Shown here in pieces: positions 28,006 to 33,801 of a stretch of 33,801 nucleotides of DNA. Each line of letters opens with the position of its first letter. The first letter of the stretch is position 1. The stretch is from Chthoniobacteraceae bacterium (lineage in GTDB: Bacteria > Verrucomicrobiota > Verrucomicrobiia > Chthoniobacterales > Chthoniobacteraceae). The position numbers were made by a program, and so were the translations under genes. The stretch is taken from contig JAQTMF010000007.1 of the NCBI GenBank assembly GCA_028714515.1, positions 1 through 33,801 on the forward strand, given 5' to 3'. The notes under the pieces are model-generated. The model was not told the DNA's origin. It saw only the letters and a program-made list of their open reading frames with translations, and did not search any database.

Positions 28006-28080
28006 TCGAGCGTAGCTCAGTGGTAGAGCGATCGGCTGTTAACCGATTGGTCGTAGGTTCGAATCCTACCGCTCGAGCCA
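28006..28080 (+). tRNA. tRNA-Asn (anticodon GTT)
   Basis: 75 bases with encoded CCA. Acceptor stem TCGAGCG / CGCTCGA, D-arm GCTCAGTGGTAGAGC, anticodon arm ATCGG-CTGTTAA-CCGAT, T-arm GTAGG-TTCGAAT-CCTAC. Gene content and base composition change directly after it, as at integration sites that use a tRNA 3' end. Confidence 0.96.
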
Positions 28081-28235
28081 TATTCTATCGGCATCGCCGG
28101 GGATATGACCCGAAAAAGTTCCAGGAAGTTCCAAAAATAAAACAATCCCTGGCCCGAAGCATTGGAAAAAATGCGATGCGCTTGAAAAGGACTAAGCGCA
28201 GTTTTTGAAAATTCCGCAAGGGGCAGCATGGCAAA

Positions 28236-28451
28236 TCACGCTGATTTTCGTCCAGCGTCCGCCCACTCCGTCAAAATCTGCGGAATGCTGGCCCTAGCTG
28301 GCCGCCTGTGGGCTTTTTCCTCTCGGGCAGCTACGACAAGGCGCGCCGGGATTTTGACGGCAATCTGAGGCTCTCCAGGAGGACGCCCGGCTCCGGGGCG
28401 TTTTCCGCCCCGGGTTGGTTTGCGTTTGGTTTTGTATTCGGCAGGGGTCAT
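28236..28451 (-). CDS. Small basic protein with GGKRPGAGRP motif
   Basis: 71 residues, very basic. RGGKRPGAGRPPG (about 15-27) is a Gly/Arg/Pro motif found at the N-terminus of many small phage and plasmid DNA-binding proteins. It is followed by VKIPARLVVAAREEK, a plausible ribbon-helix-helix strand/helix, and IPQILTEWADAGR. Likely a DNA-binding protein of the mobile region; target unknown. First gene to the right of the tRNA-Asn, transcribed toward it. The N-terminus fits the family, but there is no strong ribosome site. Confidence 0.65.
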   Translation of the reverse strand: MTPAEYKTKRKPTRGGKRPGAGRPPGEPQIAVKIPARLVVAAREEKAHRRPARASIPQILTEWADAGRKSA

Positions 28452-28466
28452 CGGGCGTTGAGGAAA

Positions 28467-28730
28467 TCAATGATTTTGGCTGGAGTCATTTGGACTCGGC
28501 CATGGGGACGGTAATTGAGGGATGAGATTAAGGATTTTTTTGCGGGTATTGTCTGGCAATTTAGCTGCATTGCCATGGGCCATCGCATTAACTAATGCTC
28601 TGGCGGCACGCTTTTCAGCAATGGCGGAATTCTGATCAAGTGCTTGAATTGCCGTGGCTATTTCCTCAGTATTCGCTCCGATAGCGATGACCTGACTCAA
28701 TGCCCACCGAGTGATGTTTTCAGGAATCAT
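28467..28730 (-). CDS. Small protein of unknown function
   Basis: 87 residues, mostly helical (TEEIATAIQALDQNSAIAEK, RAARALVNAMAHGN), with a Pro/Ser-rich tail. No domain is recognised. Its ATG is separated from the annotated stop of the next upstream gene by three bases. If that upstream gene is read through its homopolymer frameshift, the two overlap by ATGA instead, a normal coupling arrangement. Confidence 0.55.
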   Translation of the reverse strand: MIPENITRWALSQVIAIGANTEEIATAIQALDQNSAIAEKRAARALVNAMAHGNAAKLPDNTRKKILNLIPQLPSPWPSPNDSSQNH

Positions 28731-28733
28731 ATT

Positions 28734-28964
28734 TTAAGCCTCGCAGCAGACTCCATTGTAGCTCTGGCGAGCATTCGATGTGCGGCTGGCGGGGCGGTCG
28801 CAAACAGTAACCTGATGACTGCAGCTGAAATTGGGTTGCGCAAATGCCCCCCCCCGATAACCGAGTTTTGCAGCCCCGCGAGAGAGAGCATCGTCAAACC
28901 GCTCGTCTCCGCGCTGAATAAAATTGACGGATTTTCCTGCGACTGTGAGAGAGAATTTTTTCAT
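28734..28964 (-). CDS. Small protein interrupted by a G9 tract; likely frameshifted
   Basis: As written the frame has 76 codons. Up to residue 41 (MKKFSLTVAGKSVNF, ERFDDALSRGAAKLGY) it looks normal. After a run of nine G (plus-strand C9 at 28847-28855) it turns into Cys/Ser-rich sequence unlike a protein. Reading with one G fewer gives HLRNPISAAVIRLLFATAP, then AHRMLARATMESAARLKI and a stop at 28727-28729 that overlaps the next ATG as ATGA. The 78-residue version is far more plausible. Either the tract is slippery (phase variation or transcriptional slippage) or the assembly has an extra base. Function unknown. Confidence 0.5.
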   Translation of the reverse strand: MKKFSLTVAGKSVNFIQRGDERFDDALSRGAAKLGYRGGAFAQPNFSCSHQVTVCDRPASRTSNARQSYNGVCCEA

Positions 28965-29111
28965 AGTGTGTTTTCTGGTTTAGCTCGGGCCTCATTGCCC
29001 TCGACGATTCAAAAGATACCAAAACTCCTTTGATTTGCAACAACTTTTTTCAAAGAAAATACAAGATGCTGATCTGCAATGAGTTGCGATGCGAGATTCG
29101 TAGCGAATTGC

Positions 29112-29753
29112 CTATTTCGTCTGTCCTTCGAGTTCCTTTTTTTCGGCCACATGCATTTTTGCAACCGCCTCCAATTTGCTCCCGTTGTCTGATGACCTCC
29201 ATGCCACGAGTTTTCCGTCAACATAGGCCTGGACAATCCAGGATTTGACGGTGTCCCCGCGCTCATAATGCGCTCCGAGTGCTGCGTAATTATCAACGTG
29301 CTTCATTGCGGAGCACTCGAATTTCTGCGATTGGTTTCCCGGTCGTTCAAAGTCAAGACGGGCTCCGCTTTTCCCGAGTTCTATCAATCCTTCTCGATCT
29401 CCGAAAAAATAGCACAGCAAACGAACTGTTTTTGGGGTCCCAAAAAGCGAGACGGAACATTCGATACTGCGTCGGCTGTCAATGTCTCGATTGTATGACC
29501 CCCAGTCGGTTTTCCACGTGTCGTTTTGTTTGTGTCCCGTGGCTCCGCTTTTTACGTCGAGCGTGATGCTCGTTTTTGTTTGCGTAGGATTCTGCTGCAC
29601 TGACGCCCGGTCCGCCTGCTGTGAGCGGAGTTTTTCCAGGGCGGCCGCTTTACGTTCCTCCATGGTTGGTGTAGGGCTCGGAATCGGCGTTTGGCAGATT
29701 GCGGAAAGTGGAAACGCGAGAAGTGCTGCGGTGGCCATCATCCTGATGTTCAT
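29112..29753 (-). CDS. Secreted protein of unknown function
   Basis: 213 residues. Signal peptide MNIRMMATAALLAFPLSAIC with cleavage near 20, followed by a Pro/Thr linker (TPIPSPTPT), a short charged helix (MEERKAAALEKLRSQQADR), and a beta-rich domain (about 60-190) with ITLDVKSGAT, WKTDWGSYNRD and CSVSLFGTPKTVRLLCYFFGD. Four or five Cys could form disulfides. The domain looks like a single globular exported module but is not recognised. It is the only clearly exported protein in the accessory segment and stands alone on its strand. Confidence 0.72.
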   Translation of the reverse strand: MNIRMMATAALLAFPLSAICQTPIPSPTPTMEERKAAALEKLRSQQADRASVQQNPTQTKTSITLDVKSGATGHKQNDTWKTDWGSYNRDIDSRRSIECSVSLFGTPKTVRLLCYFFGDREGLIELGKSGARLDFERPGNQSQKFECSAMKHVDNYAALGAHYERGDTVKSWIVQAYVDGKLVAWRSSDNGSKLEAVAKMHVAEKKELEGQTK

Positions 29754-29784
29754 GCCGCCCTTTTACTCTGGCGTCCGCGCGCGG

Positions 29785-30009
29785 TCAATCCTGGTTTTGG
29801 TCGCTGGATTTATCCGTCACAAACTCCAGGGGAACCGCGAATAGCTCTCCGCGTTTAGATTGCAGCGTAAATGCCGTCACGGCCGCCTCAATAAATTTCG
29901 TGGCCGTTGCAAAGTCCTCGCTCTTACGGATCGCGCGTAAAAATTCGGCTTTTAAGGGGGCAGAGAGCTTGGTGTGAATAAAGTCTGATTGCGGCACCTG
30001 GTAATACAA
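29785..30009 (-). CDS. Possible ribbon-helix-helix DNA-binding protein
   Basis: Up to 74 residues. No ATG is available; the frame can start at TTG 30009 or GTG 29997 (VPQSDFIHTKL). The segment DFIHTKLSAPLKAEFLRAIR followed by FATATKFIEAAVTAFTLQSK has the strand-helix-helix spacing of Arc/CopG-type regulators. It faces a palindrome-rich control region and a rightward set of genes that also starts with a ribbon-helix-helix candidate, so it may be a regulator or antitoxin. Weak start evidence lowers confidence. Confidence 0.45.
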   Translation of the reverse strand: MYYQVPQSDFIHTKLSAPLKAEFLRAIRKSEDFATATKFIEAAVTAFTLQSKRGELFAVPLEFVTDKSSDQNQD

Positions 30010-30326
30010 AGCCCCGTTTTACAGAGGGAGAAGGCTTTATTTGTGTTCCCATGTGTGTTCCCTATTATGTTGCCTACCAGTGTGTTGCAACGTGACCCCG
30101 TTGCAAATTGGGAGCAAGACGTATTGCGCACATTGTAGGAATTCGTAATATCCCGCCATGGCCAGGAAGCGGCCGCTTCAAACATCTCCCCAGATGATCC
30201 CGATAAAGAAAAATAGGGAATCCCGCATTTCATGCTTGCATGTTTTGAGAGATTGTCCTACAAACACGAACAGTTCCGAGGGTAACTGATTCTCACGAGA
30301 ACACGCCAACCTCCTGAACGCAGTTT
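30010..30326. other. Divergent control region of the accessory segment (no gene seen)
   Basis: Some 317 bases between the leftward and rightward gene sets. It holds GTTGCAAC (30084-30091, self-complementary) and GTTGCAA (30100-30106) 8 bases apart, plus short direct repeats of TGTTCCC (about 30040-30062). No convincing promoter pair was found. A 43-codon frame at 30158-30289 is present but has no supporting features. Confidence 0.5.
30084..30106. promoter_or_regulatory. Paired GTTGCAA sites (candidate operator)
   Basis: GTTGCAAC followed after 8 bases by GTTGCAA; the outer halves also read as an inverted repeat (TTGCAAC...GTTGCAA). A dimeric ribbon-helix-helix repressor could bind such a site; two candidates flank it. 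Inference only. Confidence 0.3.
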
Positions 30327-30503
30327 GTGACAAAGAAAAAAGAAAACCCTGCCCGGCCTGGGAGAAAACGCCGGGAAGTGCCTCTGAAGAAAATCACGAT
30401 GGCCTTAGAAGATCCAGTCAAGGAAGCCTTCGATAAAAGGTCCGCAGAGCTAAAGCTCTCAAGGCCAAAAACCCTGGCTCATTTACTGGGAATGAAACCA
30501 TAA
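30327..30503 (+). CDS. 58-residue ribbon-helix-helix candidate
   Basis: GTG start, 58 residues, strongly basic N-terminus (TKKKENPARPGRKRREVP) and then LKKITMALEDPVKEAFDKRS, AELKLSRPKTLAHLLGM. The second part has the beta-strand (KKITMAL), helix, turn, helix pattern of small Arc/MetJ-like repressors. An in-frame ATG at 30399 would keep only part of the fold, so GTG 30327 is preferred. First gene of the rightward set; a perfect 12-bp hairpin begins 8 bases after its stop. Probably an autoregulator of the element. Confidence 0.5.
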   Translation: MTKKKENPARPGRKRREVPLKKITMALEDPVKEAFDKRSAELKLSRPKTLAHLLGMKP

Positions 30504-30510
30504 ACAAAGA

Positions 30511-30540
30511 CCCCATGGAGTGTTGAAGCACTCCATGGGG
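30511..30540 (+). promoter_or_regulatory. Perfect 12-bp hairpin before the next gene (attenuator or start-masking)
   Basis: CCCCATGGAGTG (30511-30522), loop TTGAAG, CACTCCATGGGG (30529-30540). There is no T tract, so it is not a standard terminator. One of the three possible start codons of the following gene (ATG 30535) is inside the right arm. Confidence 0.6.
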
Positions 30541-30552
30541 CACATACAGAAG

Positions 30553-31077
30553 ATGAAGTCGCTAAACATCAAATCTTCTGCCGAGCAGATTACGCCCGGC
30601 GGAACCGCAGATCAATCGGAAATTTCTCAGGGAAAACCTGAAGAACAAGCAGCGGCAGGAGCCGTCTACCTCGTCAATACTCGCTGGCCCTCTTGTGGCT
30701 CTGACTATGTTCTAAAAAAGAACCTGGAGAGCATCGCGGAACAAGAAGACATCGCCAAAAAGCAGCGCGCGTTCATCGCAAAACACAGTGCCGTTCTAGC
30801 GGGACTGGAGTGGAGCGTAACCTGCGTGTGGCCAGAAATCGACATTGATCCGACACACTACCGCGGCAAAGAGACAACCGCGCAGGAAATCGCCGCTATC
30901 TGGCCTGGGCTCGCATGGGCCTGGGCGGAAAACCGCTACGATAGCAGCGAAATCTGCGATTGGATTGCCACTATCGACGGGATTACACTGCGTTTGAGGG
31001 ATGCAGGCAAGGTGGATCGTCCGCGCCACACCAACGGTGAGCCAATAGCCATCGCCAAAGCGGAAGGCCGCCCCTAG
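30553..31077 (+). CDS. Protein of unknown function (accessory segment)
   Basis: 174 residues from ATG 30553; ATG 30535 and GTG 30520 are in frame further upstream, the former inside the hairpin arm. The N-terminal 35 residues are Ser/Gly/Gln-rich and probably disordered. A middle helix (VLKKNLESIAEQEDIAKKQR) leads to a Trp-rich part: LEWSVTCVWPEIDIDPTHYR, then IAAIWPGLAWAWAENRYD and DWIATIDGITLRL. The Trp content and composition resemble small phage proteins of unknown role. A hairpin follows 15 bases after the stop. Confidence 0.6.
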   Translation: MKSLNIKSSAEQITPGGTADQSEISQGKPEEQAAAGAVYLVNTRWPSCGSDYVLKKNLESIAEQEDIAKKQRAFIAKHSAVLAGLEWSVTCVWPEIDIDPTHYRGKETTAQEIAAIWPGLAWAWAENRYDSSEICDWIATIDGITLRLRDAGKVDRPRHTNGEPIAIAKAEGRP

Positions 31078-31091
31078 GACAGTAACCCCCA

Positions 31092-31113
31092 GCCGGGTCC
31101 ACTCGGGCCCGGC
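31092..31113 (+). terminator. Strong hairpin after the 174-residue gene (no T tract)
   Basis: GCCGGGTCC (31092-31100), loop ACTC, GGGCCCGGC (31105-31113), nine pairs with one T-G wobble. It lies 15 bases after a stop and before the mini-gene array, so it could slow or end transcription, but AAAACAC follows instead of T residues. Confidence 0.4.
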
Positions 31114-31182
31114 AAAACACAAAATCATACCCAAGGCACACCCGTGCCCAACTTCTGACAAAATTCGTTATACATTGTCTAT

Positions 31183-31344
31183 ATGTCAAATCTCAATTTA
31201 ACACCCGTTTTTGTTGGAACTTTCGTCCGTGAGTTTCCGTTTAATTCGCACAACGGGCCAAAAATCGGAACCATTACCTATGCGACGCAAAAGGGCCTTG
31301 AGTTCATTCGCCGCCGGCTTACTCGGGACGGAGGTGCGGAATGA
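31183..31344 (+). CDS. 53-residue protein, first of the mini-gene array
   Basis: Too short for most gene finders. MSNLNLTPVFVGTFV at the start, then NGPKIGTITYATQKGLEFIR and a basic end (RRRLTRDGGAE). Possibly a small beta-rich fold; no family recognised. TATACA at 31169-31174 is a possible -10, only 8 bases before the ATG. Its stop overlaps the next start as ATGA (31341-31344), good support for both being translated. Confidence 0.5.
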   Translation: MSNLNLTPVFVGTFVREFPFNSHNGPKIGTITYATQKGLEFIRRRLTRDGGAE

Positions 31345-31526
31345 CATCCCATTACCTCCTATGTTACATAGGCATCGTGTGGCTATTAGGTATCTGTTGG
31401 GTATCCATAGCACCGATCATCCGCGACGAAATCCATAGGCGGCGTTATCGCAACCGATACCGTTTTCATCCCCATCGGTTTTTAGTGGAGGCGATCCGGT
31501 ATTTTAACGGGCCAAAACGTCATTAG
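31341..31526 (+). CDS. Small single-pass membrane protein
   Basis: 61 residues. One hydrophobic helix near the N-terminus (about 5-26, YLLCYIGIVWLLGICWVSIA) followed by a very basic tail (IRDEIHRRRYRNRYRFHPHR), giving an N-out/C-in orientation by the positive-inside rule. Coupled to the preceding gene by ATGA. In size and shape it resembles small phage or plasmid membrane proteins; function unknown. Confidence 0.55.
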   Translation: MTSHYLLCYIGIVWLLGICWVSIAPIIRDEIHRRRYRNRYRFHPHRFLVEAIRYFNGPKRH

Positions 31527-31530
31527 CACT

Positions 31531-31713
31531 ATGACCTACATCATCGAAATCCTAATGGACGATGGACAAAAAGGTCGTTTACGCATCCGGCGCGATTCCG
31601 TTCTGCTCGCCTCGCGAAAGGCACAGGATTTTGCAGGGAAGCTCGCGAGTCCAGGAACGGTCTATCTATTCACTCAGGATGGAACCTGCATTGAGCACTA
31701 TCGCCATGACTAG
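31531..31713 (+). CDS. 60-residue protein of the mini-gene array
   Basis: MTYIIEILMDDGQKGRLRIR then DSVLLASRKAQDFAGKLASP and TVYLFTQDGTCIEHYRHD: an alternating beta-helix-beta pattern of a small globular domain. No family recognised. It begins 4 bases after the membrane-protein stop, and its last 8 bases overlap the next gene. Confidence 0.55.
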   Translation: MTYIIEILMDDGQKGRLRIRRDSVLLASRKAQDFAGKLASPGTVYLFTQDGTCIEHYRHD

Positions 31714-32017
31714 TCAATACGAGGTATTGCAGCCGTTCGTGACTGAGCGTATACGCGAGTTGGTTCGCGGGCGGCTACTTGAGGGTTTGAAGTTTTTTGA
31801 TGGGCACAACATTCGCCCAGGGTTTGACCGTGCAGAGGTAAAGCTAGCGCTGCTCTTGACGAAGATCGGAAACCCAATGGAATGCCTGTCTATTGACGAA
31901 ACCAGCCTCCTTGATTCACCAATGCGTCAACAACAAGTTAAGTCAAAGAGCGAACATATAAAAGTAGATTATGGACAAATTAAGGCATCTTTGGAATCTC
32001 CAAAAAAACGGGATTAG
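31706..32017 (+). CDS. 103-residue protein of the mini-gene array
   Basis: Start ATG 31706 lies inside the end of the previous gene; a longer in-frame start at 31562 would overlap that gene almost fully and is rejected. N-terminal amphipathic helix (VTERIRELVRGRLLEGLKFF), then NIRPGFDRAEVKLALLLTKI, and a charged C-terminus (VKSKSEHIKVDYGQ, SPKKRD). Not recognised. The helical first half could mediate dimerisation; this is only a structural impression. Confidence 0.55.
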   Translation: MTSQYEVLQPFVTERIRELVRGRLLEGLKFFDGHNIRPGFDRAEVKLALLLTKIGNPMECLSIDETSLLDSPMRQQQVKSKSEHIKVDYGQIKASLESPKKRD

Positions 32018-32035
32018 GCTTCGCTCATCGAAGAC

Positions 32036-32308
32036 ATGGAATCAAACATTAAAGACGCCGATATCTATTTTGAAACCGAGATGCGCCTTGTCGGCGAGCG
32101 GGTGGAGAACATCGCTAGGCAGTTCATCCAAAGCGAGTGCTGCACAGACATCCGCGGGGCGGCTCAACTCCTAGGGCTATCAATGGCAAACACCAGAAAA
32201 TGCGCAAGGCACTGGCCGCTTATTAATCTCGGAGAGCGTTCCAACCGTTACCGCATCGCGGATATAATCAAATACCGCGATTCAAAAACTAAACAACCCA
32301 AAATATAG
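32036..32308 (+). CDS. Excisionase/AlpA-like DNA-binding protein
   Basis: 90 residues. After an N-terminal helix (residues 10-35) comes CTDIRGAAQLLGLSMANTRK, a helix-turn-helix, then LINLGERSNRYRIADIIKYR, the wing and last helix of the MerR-like excisionase fold. This is the clearest mobile-element signature in the segment: such proteins direct excision or regulate early genes. The partner integrase is not visible in the window. It follows the previous gene by 18 bases. Confidence 0.7.
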   Translation: MESNIKDADIYFETEMRLVGERVENIARQFIQSECCTDIRGAAQLLGLSMANTRKCARHWPLINLGERSNRYRIADIIKYRDSKTKQPKI

Positions 32309-32310
32309 TC

Positions 32311-32574
32311 ATGCCGCACAATGTTTGTCTTCGGGGGCCTATATATACATTCCGGTGTTATGGAGTGCATGAGGCAAAGGATGCCGGAATCATAGATAAA
32401 TTGGGAAACAACGGAACACATGCATCAGTGAGCACTCCGTTCACGCAATGCGAGGGACTGCTATTGGAAGACTGGATCAAGAAACTTCCTGACGCCGTTC
32501 TGATTGAGACAGGACGCAATGAAATCACGGTTTACAGGCCAAAATCCCGCCTGGTGATTCTCCAGCAAGAATAG
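32311..32574 (+). CDS. 87-residue protein of the mini-gene array
   Basis: Starts 2 bases after the excisionase-like stop. A beta-rich beginning (CLRGPIYTFRCYGVHEAK) leads to EGLLLEDWIKKLPDAVLIET and ITVYRPKSRLVILQQE at the end. Two Cys in the first 20 residues. No family recognised; the pattern suggests a small alpha/beta domain. Confidence 0.55.
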   Translation: MPHNVCLRGPIYTFRCYGVHEAKDAGIIDKLGNNGTHASVSTPFTQCEGLLLEDWIKKLPDAVLIETGRNEITVYRPKSRLVILQQE

Positions 32575-32576
32575 CC

Positions 32577-32759
32577 ATGCACCGTTCCTGTTCCTGTTCC
32601 TGCGCTGACAGACTATGCGGAGCGCTGGATTGCATGACATGCCATCCCGAAAATCGCGAGGTAGATACCATGGAACAACAGATTGATGTATGGGATGCGC
32701 GACAGGACGACGACCTCTATCAATTTCAGCAAGTCGAACTTCGGGACATTTTGATATGA
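32577..32759 (+). CDS. Small Cys-rich N-terminus protein
   Basis: 60 residues; six Cys in the first 22 (C5, C7, C9, C14, C19, C22) ending in DCMTCHPEN, then an acidic, Cys-free second half (EVDTMEQQIDVWDARQDDD). The spacing CxCxC...C...CxxC could bind a metal ion or cluster. The start is 2 bases after the previous stop, and the end overlaps the next start (ATGA, 32756-32759). No known family. Confidence 0.5.
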   Translation: MHRSCSCSCADRLCGALDCMTCHPENREVDTMEQQIDVWDARQDDDLYQFQQVELRDILI

Positions 32760-33079
32760 ACATCTACGACAAAATATTTCGCGTTCTGCGCCAGGATGAA
32801 TTTTTGGAACCAGGGGATGTTTCCATGAATGGATCCGTTCCTCGGGAGATCACATACGCAAACTGCGGGTTCCGAGTCGATCGCGGCTATTACCTCCGGC
32901 CTGTTCTTATCGCGACTGTAGCAAAACGCATCCTCGATCTCGTACCGAGCGAATGCGCGCCGGATGAGCAATACCAAATCCCCGGAGCACTTCTCAACAT
33001 CCTGCGCACGGCGTTGGATGGAAACCTAACCATTTCAAATGCGAGCTGCGGCGTGGACGGAGACACGCACCTGATGTGA
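32756..33079 (+). CDS. 107-residue protein, last of the mini-gene array
   Basis: ATG 32756 overlaps the previous stop; the longer frame would run through the Cys-rich gene. MNIYDKIFRVLRQDEFLEPG, then YLRPVLIATVAKRILDLVPS and IPGALLNILRTALDGNL: mixed alpha/beta with several amphipathic helices. Not recognised. After its stop come 96 bases with a tRNA T-arm-like sequence before the repeat protein. Confidence 0.55.
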   Translation: MNIYDKIFRVLRQDEFLEPGDVSMNGSVPREITYANCGFRVDRGYYLRPVLIATVAKRILDLVPSECAPDEQYQIPGALLNILRTALDGNLTISNASCGVDGDTHLM

Positions 33080-33127
33080 GGCTCGGTCAAGCCAGTGGGT
33101 ATCCACTTTAAAAATGCCCAACCCGAA

Positions 33128-33155
33128 GCCGGTTCAATTCCGGCCCGCTCGCACC
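33128..33155 (+). other. tRNA T-arm-like remnant
   Basis: GCCGG-TTCAATT-CCGGC (33128-33144) is a complete T-arm with the invariant TTC and A, followed by CCGCTCG and CACC like an acceptor 3' strand. The upstream sequence gives only a five-pair acceptor match (GTGAG at 33076-33080) and no normal D-arm or anticodon arm. Probably a decayed tRNA or an attachment-site relic rather than a working tRNA. Confidence 0.4.
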
Positions 33156-33175
33156 TTTTAACCAAACAAAAACAC

Positions 33176-33801
33176 ATGTGCCAATTCAAATCAGCAATCG
33201 TAACAGCAACACTGGATGTCCTCAGTAATCCCTACACGGACGCCCACGAGGATCTCATTCGACTTTTTAAGCTCAACGACACACCTACACCGAGAGGAGA
33301 GCCGCGCTTCGCCCGTGTCGAGTTCCGCCCCGAAAAAGTGGAGGATATGGCAGACCCGGACAAATATATCCTTGTCATCGACGAGCAACGCACGCCGGAA
33401 TGGTTCGACGACAAGGCGAAAGAAAAAGTCACTGAAAAACTCAAGATCATCATCTCTGGGATGATCATCAAGGGTGATGCTGATCTTCTCTGTGGGGGTG
33501 CATATATCCTGGCCAATGACGCGAAAGTTGCGTGCGTCAAAAACGCACTCATTCATGCCATGCTGGGAACCTCCCGGGTCGGCGAGATGCGGGAAACCTC
33601 CCGGGTCGGCACGATGTGGGGAACCTCCCAGGTCGGCACGATGTGGGAAACCTCCCAGGTCGGCGAGATGCGGGAAACCTCCCGGGTCGGCACGATGTGG
33701 GGAACCTCCCAGGTCGGCGAGATGCGGGAAACCTCCCAGGTCGGCAAGATGTGGGGAACCTCCCAGCTCGGCAAGATGCGGGAAACCTCCCGAGTCGGCA
33801 C
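33176..33801 (+). CDS. Nonapeptide-repeat protein (mobile-element type), 3' end missing
   Basis: Open to the right edge, 208 codons visible. Residues 1-130 form a unique domain: MCQFKSAIVTATLD, FARVEFRPEKVEDMADPDKY, TPEWFDDKAKEKVTEKLKII, GGAYILANDAKVACVKNALI. From residue 131 the protein is built of nine-residue units [GE]TS[RQ]VG[ETK]M[RW], eight complete and one cut. From memory, the MCxFKSAI start with (N/T)SxVxxM repeats occurs in hypothetical proteins of gut-type phages and mobile elements; the function is unknown. Nine-residue periodicity with Thr, Val and Met in fixed places suggests a beta-solenoid. The ATG is preceded by an A-rich leader only. Confidence 0.75.
   Translation, partial: MCQFKSAIVTATLDVLSNPYTDAHEDLIRLFKLNDTPTPRGEPRFARVEFRPEKVEDMADPDKYILVIDEQRTPEWFDDKAKEKVTEKLKIIISGMIIKGDADLLCGGAYILANDAKVACVKNALIHAMLGTSRVGEMRETSRVGTMWGTSQVGTMWETSQVGEMRETSRVGTMWGTSQVGEMRETSQVGKMWGTSQLGKMRETSRVG
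33566..33801 (+). repeat. 27-bp tandem repeat array (in frame, reaches window edge)
   Basis: Eight full units plus 20 bases, starting GGAACCTCC. Differences sit at few positions: CGG/CAG (R/Q), GAG/ACG/AAG (E/T/K), CGG/TGG (R/W) and GAA/GGA (E/G); the rest is nearly invariant at the DNA level, which points to recent expansion or exchange between units. Confidence 0.97.

What the first reader, a model, noticed from the sequence alone, without database searches (positions are those of the whole stretch)
33176..33801. Nonapeptide beta-solenoid candidate with nearly identical DNA repeats
Units [GE]TS[RQ]VG[ETK]M[RW] run in exact 27-bp phase. R and W at position 9 mostly alternate and couple with E or G at the next position (MR-E, MW-G), giving an 18-residue super-unit, similar in period to a two-strand coil. 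Variation is confined to outward-looking positions while Thr, Ser, Val, Gly and Met stay fixed, as if a binding surface were being diversified.
Basis: partly seen in the sequence, partly recalled or inferred. Interest (0 to 1): 0.7.

Follow-up and report, generated by a model that had tools for sequence, protein, structure and literature searches.

The report
Fast-shuffling phage repeat-solenoid binding protein
The window ends inside a phage-type gene whose protein is a fixed head plus a coiled stack of nearly identical 9-residue units; in related phages the number, order and exposed residues of the units change much faster than the rest of the gene, and the same head is used elsewhere by proteins that a mutating retroelement diversifies, so this looks like a retroelement-free way to keep changing a binding surface.

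Summary
An ORF starting at 33176 (MCQFKSAIV...) has a 130-residue head followed by eight full 9-residue units and one partial unit, and the contig ends inside the array. AlphaFold2 predicts a confident beta-solenoid (pLDDT 94.5), one strand per unit. Relatives (58% head identity at best) are early genes of temperate phages. Same-type heads carry arrays with 7-, 8- or 9-residue units. Within arrays, changes fall on the same three codons per unit (motif X-hydrophobic-Z-[D/G/E]): pN exceeds pS in 30 of 30 arrays at those codons, and in 26 of 30 over whole units. Genes with ~99% identical heads and tails have arrays of 34 versus 12 units; a pair using the closest unit type has 16 versus 10, reordered.

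In Lachnospiraceae the same head is fused instead to a C-type-lectin-like domain diversified by a classical diversity-generating retroelement (92/154 template adenines substituted versus 8/448 other bases). No reverse transcriptase was found in array-bearing virus records or in the window's genome.

Best reading: a variable binding protein diversified by repeat turnover plus selection, not by a retroelement. Ligand and head function are unknown.

The parts
33176..33565 (+). conserved head domain (130 aa, MCQFKSAIV...NALIHAML); start codon set by homologues that nearly all begin M-C-x-F-K-S
   Evidence: AF2
33566..33801 (+). tandem array of 27-bp units (8 full + 1 partial) encoding 9-aa beta-solenoid repeats [GE]TS[RQ][VL]G[ETK]M[RW]; cut by the contig end
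28081..33801 (.). low-GC island (about 0.48-0.56 against 0.63-0.64 to the left) that starts at tRNA-Asn and holds the gene; probable integrated mobile element, right end not in the assembly
   Evidence: no second copy of the tRNA 3' end in the genome
28006..28080 (+). tRNA-Asn (GTT) at the left edge of the island, possible integration site

Best explanation
The gene encodes a phage-type (probably temperate-phage early-region) variable binding protein. A constant ~125-residue head carries or anchors a beta-solenoid built from near-identical 24-27 bp (rarely 21 bp) units. The array gains, loses and reorders units by recombination or slippage between direct repeats, which also keeps the scaffold codons identical. 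Diversifying selection keeps several alternative residues at three positions per unit (X, Z and the D/G/E turn position), so each phage lineage presents a different combination of side chains along the solenoid. It is a retroelement-free counterpart of a DGR variable protein: the same head is fused in Lachnospiraceae to a C-type-lectin-like domain that a classical DGR diversifies. SHOWN by computation: array, predicted fold, shared head, DGR in the sister architecture, turnover, pN>pS at the same codons. INFERRED: outward orientation of the variable residues, ligand binding, the recombination/slippage route. GUESSED: the ligand (host or rival-phage intracellular factor, e.g. for counter-defence or superinfection control, because the gene sits near repressor/antirepressor genes and has no obvious signal sequence).
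For: AF2 solenoid, pLDDT 94.5 / pTM 0.87. Head homologues with arrays in IMG/VR phages, Dulem virus 35 and Clostridia genomes. 30/30 arrays pN(surface codons) > pS, medians 0.24 vs 0.00, scaffold pN 0.008; whole-unit pN>pS in 26/30, p=4e-7, with no choice of positions. Turnover: L085/L095 head 267/270 nt and tail 122/123 nt identical, 34 vs 12 units; L117/L120 (unit type closest to the window) head part 109/111, tail 45/45, 16 vs 10 units in different order; L092/L094 differ by one unit inside a run of identical units; L066/L067 heads 95.8% identical, arrays differ from unit 1. Array GC3 above locus codon usage in 28/30, mean +0.26, p=2e-8, as recombination-linked GC bias would give. Same head in DGR loci: BLASTP window vs L034 E=8e-13, L027 vs L034 56% over 106 aa; VR-TR-RT order with RVT_1; 92/154 TR adenines vs 8/448 other bases substituted. 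No RVT_1 in array-bearing virus records or in G000. Early-region setting with integrase and cI-like repressor upstream in many loci; Bro-N/KilAC antirepressor and RecT neighbours in L027.
Against: No ligand, no expression data, no experiment. Foldseek finds no significant solved structure for the model, so the fold rests on AF2, which can over-stack repeats. Some arrays are nearly uniform (L085, 28 of 34 units identical), so strong diversity is not universal. Older arrays (L046, L050, L053, L011) carry many synonymous changes too. The three-position motif was noticed on some of the same arrays it was tested on (the whole-unit test avoids this). Arrays of related loci are not fully independent. 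IMG/VR records are often incomplete, so absence of a reverse transcriptase is only indicative.
Confidence: 0.62

Rival explanations
1. Neutral or selfish repeat turnover: the solenoid is a rod or spacer, units drift and slip, and the variable positions are merely unconstrained.
For: Slippage-like changes exist (L092/L094 differ by one unit; L085 has 28 identical units). Some arrays show little diversity.
Against: Per-site nonsynonymous difference at the three codons exceeds synonymous difference in 30/30 arrays, and over whole units in 26/30; neutral positions should give pN about equal to pS. The same three positions vary in 7-, 8- and 9-residue units.
Confidence: 0.2
2. Virion structural protein: a spike or adhesin with a T4 gp5-like triple-stranded beta-helix, whose repeats set length and receptor specificity.
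For: The 8-residue array of L012 matches Pfam Gp5_trimer_C at E=1.3e-6, just under the cut-off; the T4 spike ends in a triple-stranded beta-helix (PMC4576200).
Against: The window protein has no Pfam match. AF2 folds it as a confident monomer. Several relatives lie in the integrase/repressor/antirepressor region rather than among tail genes; L028 lies just upstream of what look by sequence like packaging genes.
Confidence: 0.12
3. The arrays are diversified by an undetected diversity-generating retroelement acting in trans.
For: The same head is a DGR target in other lineages. Variable nucleotide columns are more frequent at codon positions 1 and 2 (60, 73) than 3 (39).
Against: No RVT_1 in the array-bearing virus records searched or in G000. 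Scaffold adenines stay unchanged (e.g. AGC and ACG in all 19 units of L012; ATG in all 18 of L071), unlike adenine mutagenesis. Copy-number changes are not a DGR product.
Confidence: 0.05
4. The array acts as DNA (iteron, partition or recombination site) and its translation is incidental.
For: Third bases are almost invariant and GC3 is high even in low-GC phages.
Against: Arrays keep frame with a conserved head; variation is mainly nonsynonymous; unit DNA differs between families (SATVRAYD, GGTVSAIR, TSQVGEMW); AF2 gives a confident fold.
Confidence: 0.04

Closest known systems
DGR variable proteins with a C-terminal DUF6273 / C-type-lectin-like variable region (e.g. Faecalibacterium phage targets, PMC11792537; Mtd, TvpA)
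   Same: Homologous head in L033-L036, L047, L049, L052; diversified C-terminal module on a constant N-terminal domain
   Different: Here the module is a repeat solenoid, with no reverse transcriptase found; diversity comes as unit number, order and three codons per unit
T4 gp5 C-terminal triple-stranded beta-helix (Gp5_trimer_C; PMC4576200)
   Same: Short-period beta-helical repeats in a phage protein; a related 8-residue array scores just below the Pfam cut-off
   Different: 9-residue unit in the window, no match for the window protein, early-gene setting in several relatives, near-identical DNA units
Pentapeptide-repeat proteins and ice-binding beta-solenoids
   Same: Beta-solenoid made of short repeats; the best though non-significant PDB folds are ice-binding proteins
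   Different: No pentapeptide or ice-binding family match; hypervariable positions instead of a regular surface
Fast-evolving tandem repeats of Borg elements (PMC9879509)
   Same: Recently formed, rapidly evolving in-frame DNA repeats in mobile-element genes
   Different: Borg repeats are reported to create disordered regions; these are predicted to be ordered solenoids with a fixed set of varying codons
Lamprey variable lymphocyte receptors (from my own knowledge, not tested)
   Same: Solenoid repeats whose exposed residues vary by shuffling units on a constant frame
   Different: Unrelated fold (leucine-rich repeats), somatic gene assembly, immune function

Membership tests
DGR variable protein system | reverse transcriptase (RVT_1) in the same element or genome | tested here: not met
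   none in G000 (genome 92.9% complete) nor in the array-bearing virus records searched
DGR variable protein system | template repeat with adenine-specific differences to a variable region | tested here: inconclusive
   shown for the sister loci L033-L036, L047, L049, L052; the window array has no second match in G000, but the gene is truncated and the assembly incomplete
DGR variable protein system | C-type-lectin-type variable domain | tested here: not met
   window protein predicted as a beta-solenoid; the sister L034 has DUF6273 below cut-off and weak C-type-lectin fold matches
DGR variable protein system | shared N-terminal head domain with the sister DGR proteins (link, not a general DGR feature) | tested here: met
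   BLASTP E=8e-13 window vs L034; 56% identity over 106 aa L027 vs L034
beta-solenoid repeat proteins (fold class) | regular strand-turn coils stacked along an axis | tested here: met
   AF2: one strand per 9-residue unit, pLDDT 94.5, pTM 0.87; prediction only, no significant PDB match
T4 gp5-type triple-stranded beta-helix | octapeptide repeats matching Gp5_trimer_C, and trimerisation | tested here: inconclusive
   window has no match; L012 array 28.9 bits vs cut-off 30.9; trimerisation not testable
Pentapeptide-repeat proteins | match to Pfam pentapeptide families | tested here: not met
   no Pfam match at E<=1 for the window protein
known anti-phage defence proteins | match to PADLOC models | tested here: not met
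   no match for the window protein

The most novel reading that the evidence does not exclude
Phages carry a widespread, retroelement-free protein diversification system: modular arrays of 21-27 bp units on several unrelated heads (this head, DUF7666-like, a Bacteroides-type head) that are shuffled by repeat recombination and selected at three codons per unit, interchangeable on the same head with DGR-diversified lectin domains, and used to track a changing intracellular or surface target.
Probability: 0.42. Interest if true: 0.85.

Novelty: new variant of a known kind. Interest (0 to 1): 0.64.

Why it matters
Targeted protein diversification in phages is usually discussed in terms of diversity-generating retroelements. 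Finding one head domain attached either to a DGR-diversified lectin or to a fast-turnover repeat solenoid suggests two interchangeable routes to the same end, and it gives a natural control for asking what DGR targets outside tail genes do. Arrays of this kind occur on several other heads in phage genomes and seem to break assemblies (several genomes have the array at both contig ends), so their diversity is probably under-counted in metagenomes. No description of these arrays was found in the literature searches.

Tried and rejected
Pfam, PHROGs, NCBIfam and PADLOC searches of the window protein gave nothing for the head. PDB sequence search and Foldseek gave no significant relative. R-E/W-G coupling as a structural rule: reversed in L066. 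DGR acting on the arrays: no reverse transcriptase. RecT annealase as the general driver of turnover: only 3 of 20 array records have RecT. Recovering the missing end of the gene or array from other contigs: none carries array or head. Prophage right end via a repeat of the tRNA-Asn 3' end: not found. Window neighbour ORFs 28467-33079 have no relative in the loci held at that stage. None of the other 96 genomes from genus to order has the head, so it is probably a recent arrival in this genome.

Full report
OBSERVATION. The window is the whole of contig C7 of a 340-contig, 3.24-Mb assembly, and it ends inside the repeat array. The reading frame begins at M33176; homologues that start M-C-x-F-K-S fix this start. 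Residues 1-130 (33176-33565) are unique sequence. From 33566 there are eight full 27-bp units and one partial unit. All codon changes among the full units are nonsynonymous. The claimed MR-E/MW-G coupling is 4/4 and 3/4, not significant by itself; it is reversed in L066 and absent in L004, and unit identity shows no lag-2 excess in 18 arrays. The linkage is what unit duplication leaves behind, not a structural rule.

SETTING. The gene lies in a low-GC stretch (about 0.48-0.56 against 0.63-0.64) that begins at tRNA-Asn 28006-28080, as expected of an integrated element, though no second attachment copy was found. The head occurs in none of 96 other genomes from genus to order. It occurs in phage contigs: best match 58% identity in IMG/VR (L007), 40% over the full length in Dulem virus 35 (L004). 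In Dulem virus 35 the gene follows integrase and repressor genes and precedes AAA and helicase genes. Ten loci have a related integrase, mostly on the opposite strand and 4-8 kb upstream, and seven have repressor-type genes a few kb upstream. In L027 the neighbours are a Bro-N/KilAC antirepressor and a RecT protein. Position is not uniform: L028 lies upstream of what look like packaging genes. This is a temperate-phage early or accessory gene in many cases.

FOLD. AlphaFold2 with an alignment of 33 sequences from the window and fetched loci gives pLDDT 94.5 and pTM 0.87, with one strand per 9-residue unit. Foldseek finds no significant solved structure (best ice-binding solenoids, E 0.26) and only uncharacterised viral proteins in BFVD. 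The solenoid is therefore a confident prediction, not a demonstrated fold, and side-chain exposure was not measured.

ARRAYS ON THE SAME TYPE OF HEAD. Arrays use units of 9 (SSQVGEMWG, SSTVQEMYD, NASITGVRD types), 8 (GGTVSAIR, SATVRAYD, NATSKHYS) or 7 residues (HGTVTDN). In all of them the varying codons are X and Z on either side of a conserved residue and the following D/G/E: X-hydrophobic-Z-[DGE]. Per-site nonsynonymous difference at these codons exceeds synonymous difference in 30 of 30 arrays (medians 0.24 and 0.00; scaffold codons 0.008). Without choosing positions it does so in 26 of 30 (p=4e-7). The commonest residues are E/R/K/A at X, Y/W/R/C at Z and G/D at the turn.

TURNOVER. L085 and L095 share 98.9% of head and 99.2% of tail nucleotides but have 34 and 12 units (these two have another head type, see below). 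L117 and L120, with the unit type nearest the window's, share 109/111 head-side and 45/45 tail bases and have 16 and 10 units in different order. L119 and L121 share 128/129 tail bases with different arrays. L092 and L094 differ by one unit within a run of identical units. L062, L063 and L064 (84-88% head identity) and L066/L067 (95.8%) also differ. Third-position GC in the arrays exceeds the expectation from each locus's codon usage in 28 of 30, mean +0.26, which fits frequent recombination with GC-biased repair but is not proof of it. Several viral contigs have the array at both ends, as if assembly of a circular genome failed only there.

LINK TO DGRs. In Lachnospiraceae and related loci (L033-L036, L047, L049, L052) the same head (window vs L034 BLASTP E=8e-13; L027 vs L034 56% over 106 aa) is followed by a domain with sub-threshold DUF6273 similarity and weak C-type-lectin fold similarity (model pLDDT 85.1). 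Its last ~90 bp have a template copy downstream, then an RVT_1 reverse transcriptase; a conserved 120-aa ORF lies between variable gene and template (no Pfam match). In the seven template/variable pairs 92 of 154 template adenines are substituted against 8 of 448 other bases. Array-bearing virus records and the window's genome have no reverse transcriptase. The head therefore carries two kinds of diversified module.

OTHER HEADS. The same kind of array sits on other N-terminal domains in phage contigs: a QAELDAALA...GVWL head with a DUF7666-like tail (assigned by eye), a Bacteroides-type head (L085, L095), and more divergent MC-type heads (L097, L122). Pseudanabaena phage Pan4 has a Pfam DUF7666 head followed by a different short repeat. 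The closest relative's phage carries a second such gene upstream (L007 4948-5694).

MECHANISM. Shown: array, predicted fold, shared head, DGR in the sister architecture, turnover, excess nonsynonymous change at fixed positions. Inferred: the variable residues are exposed and bind; unit gain, loss and reordering arise by recombination or slippage. RecT is present in only 3 of 20 array records, so no RecT-type phage annealase is required. Guessed: the ligand is intracellular (no obvious signal sequence, early-region location), perhaps a host or rival-phage factor. The head's function is unknown; its near-invariant positions are C2, K5, S6, H24, E49, P52, D69, P74 and W76, but Cys2 is Gly in L047.

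NOVELTY. Tandem-repeat variation and DGRs are both known. The combination - a repeat solenoid diversified at fixed codons on a head shared with DGR targets - was not found described in the papers searched. I file it as a new variant of a known kind.

Noticed in passing
window 33091-33157: tRNA 3'-half-like sequence (T-arm GCCGGTTCAATTCCGGC plus CCGCTCGCACC) just upstream of the head gene; Rfam tRNA-Sec 16.9 bits, far below the gathering score, not called by ARAGORN; single copy in the genome. Possible tRNA remnant or attachment core.
   Followed up: partly
L007 4948-5694: Second gene in the closest relative's phage with 8-residue SSHVVAWG-type repeats of the same X-hydrophobic-Z-[GE] pattern on a different head.
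   Followed up: partly
L085, L095, L087, L089, L091, L092, L102, L109: SATV-type arrays on several unrelated heads (QAELDAALA head with DUF7666-like tail; MKTFEELKKDLLERAKK head; N-terminal DUF7666-like head): a modular array shared by different phage proteins.
   Followed up: partly
IMG/VR contigs 3300012078_000002, 3300037076_000127, 3300032893_000128, 3300033067_001294: Array found at both contig ends: apparently circular phage genomes broken by the assembler only in the array.
   Followed up: no
L034 8001-10491 and equivalents in L033, L035, L036, L047, L049, L052: Complete-looking DGR cassettes (variable gene, 120-aa conserved ORF, template repeat, reverse transcriptase); L033, L034 and L035 are near identical except in the variable region.
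   Followed up: yes
window 28081-33175: Island ORFs between tRNA-Asn and the head gene: those tested have no Pfam match above cut-off and none has a relative in the loci fetched by then.
   Followed up: partly
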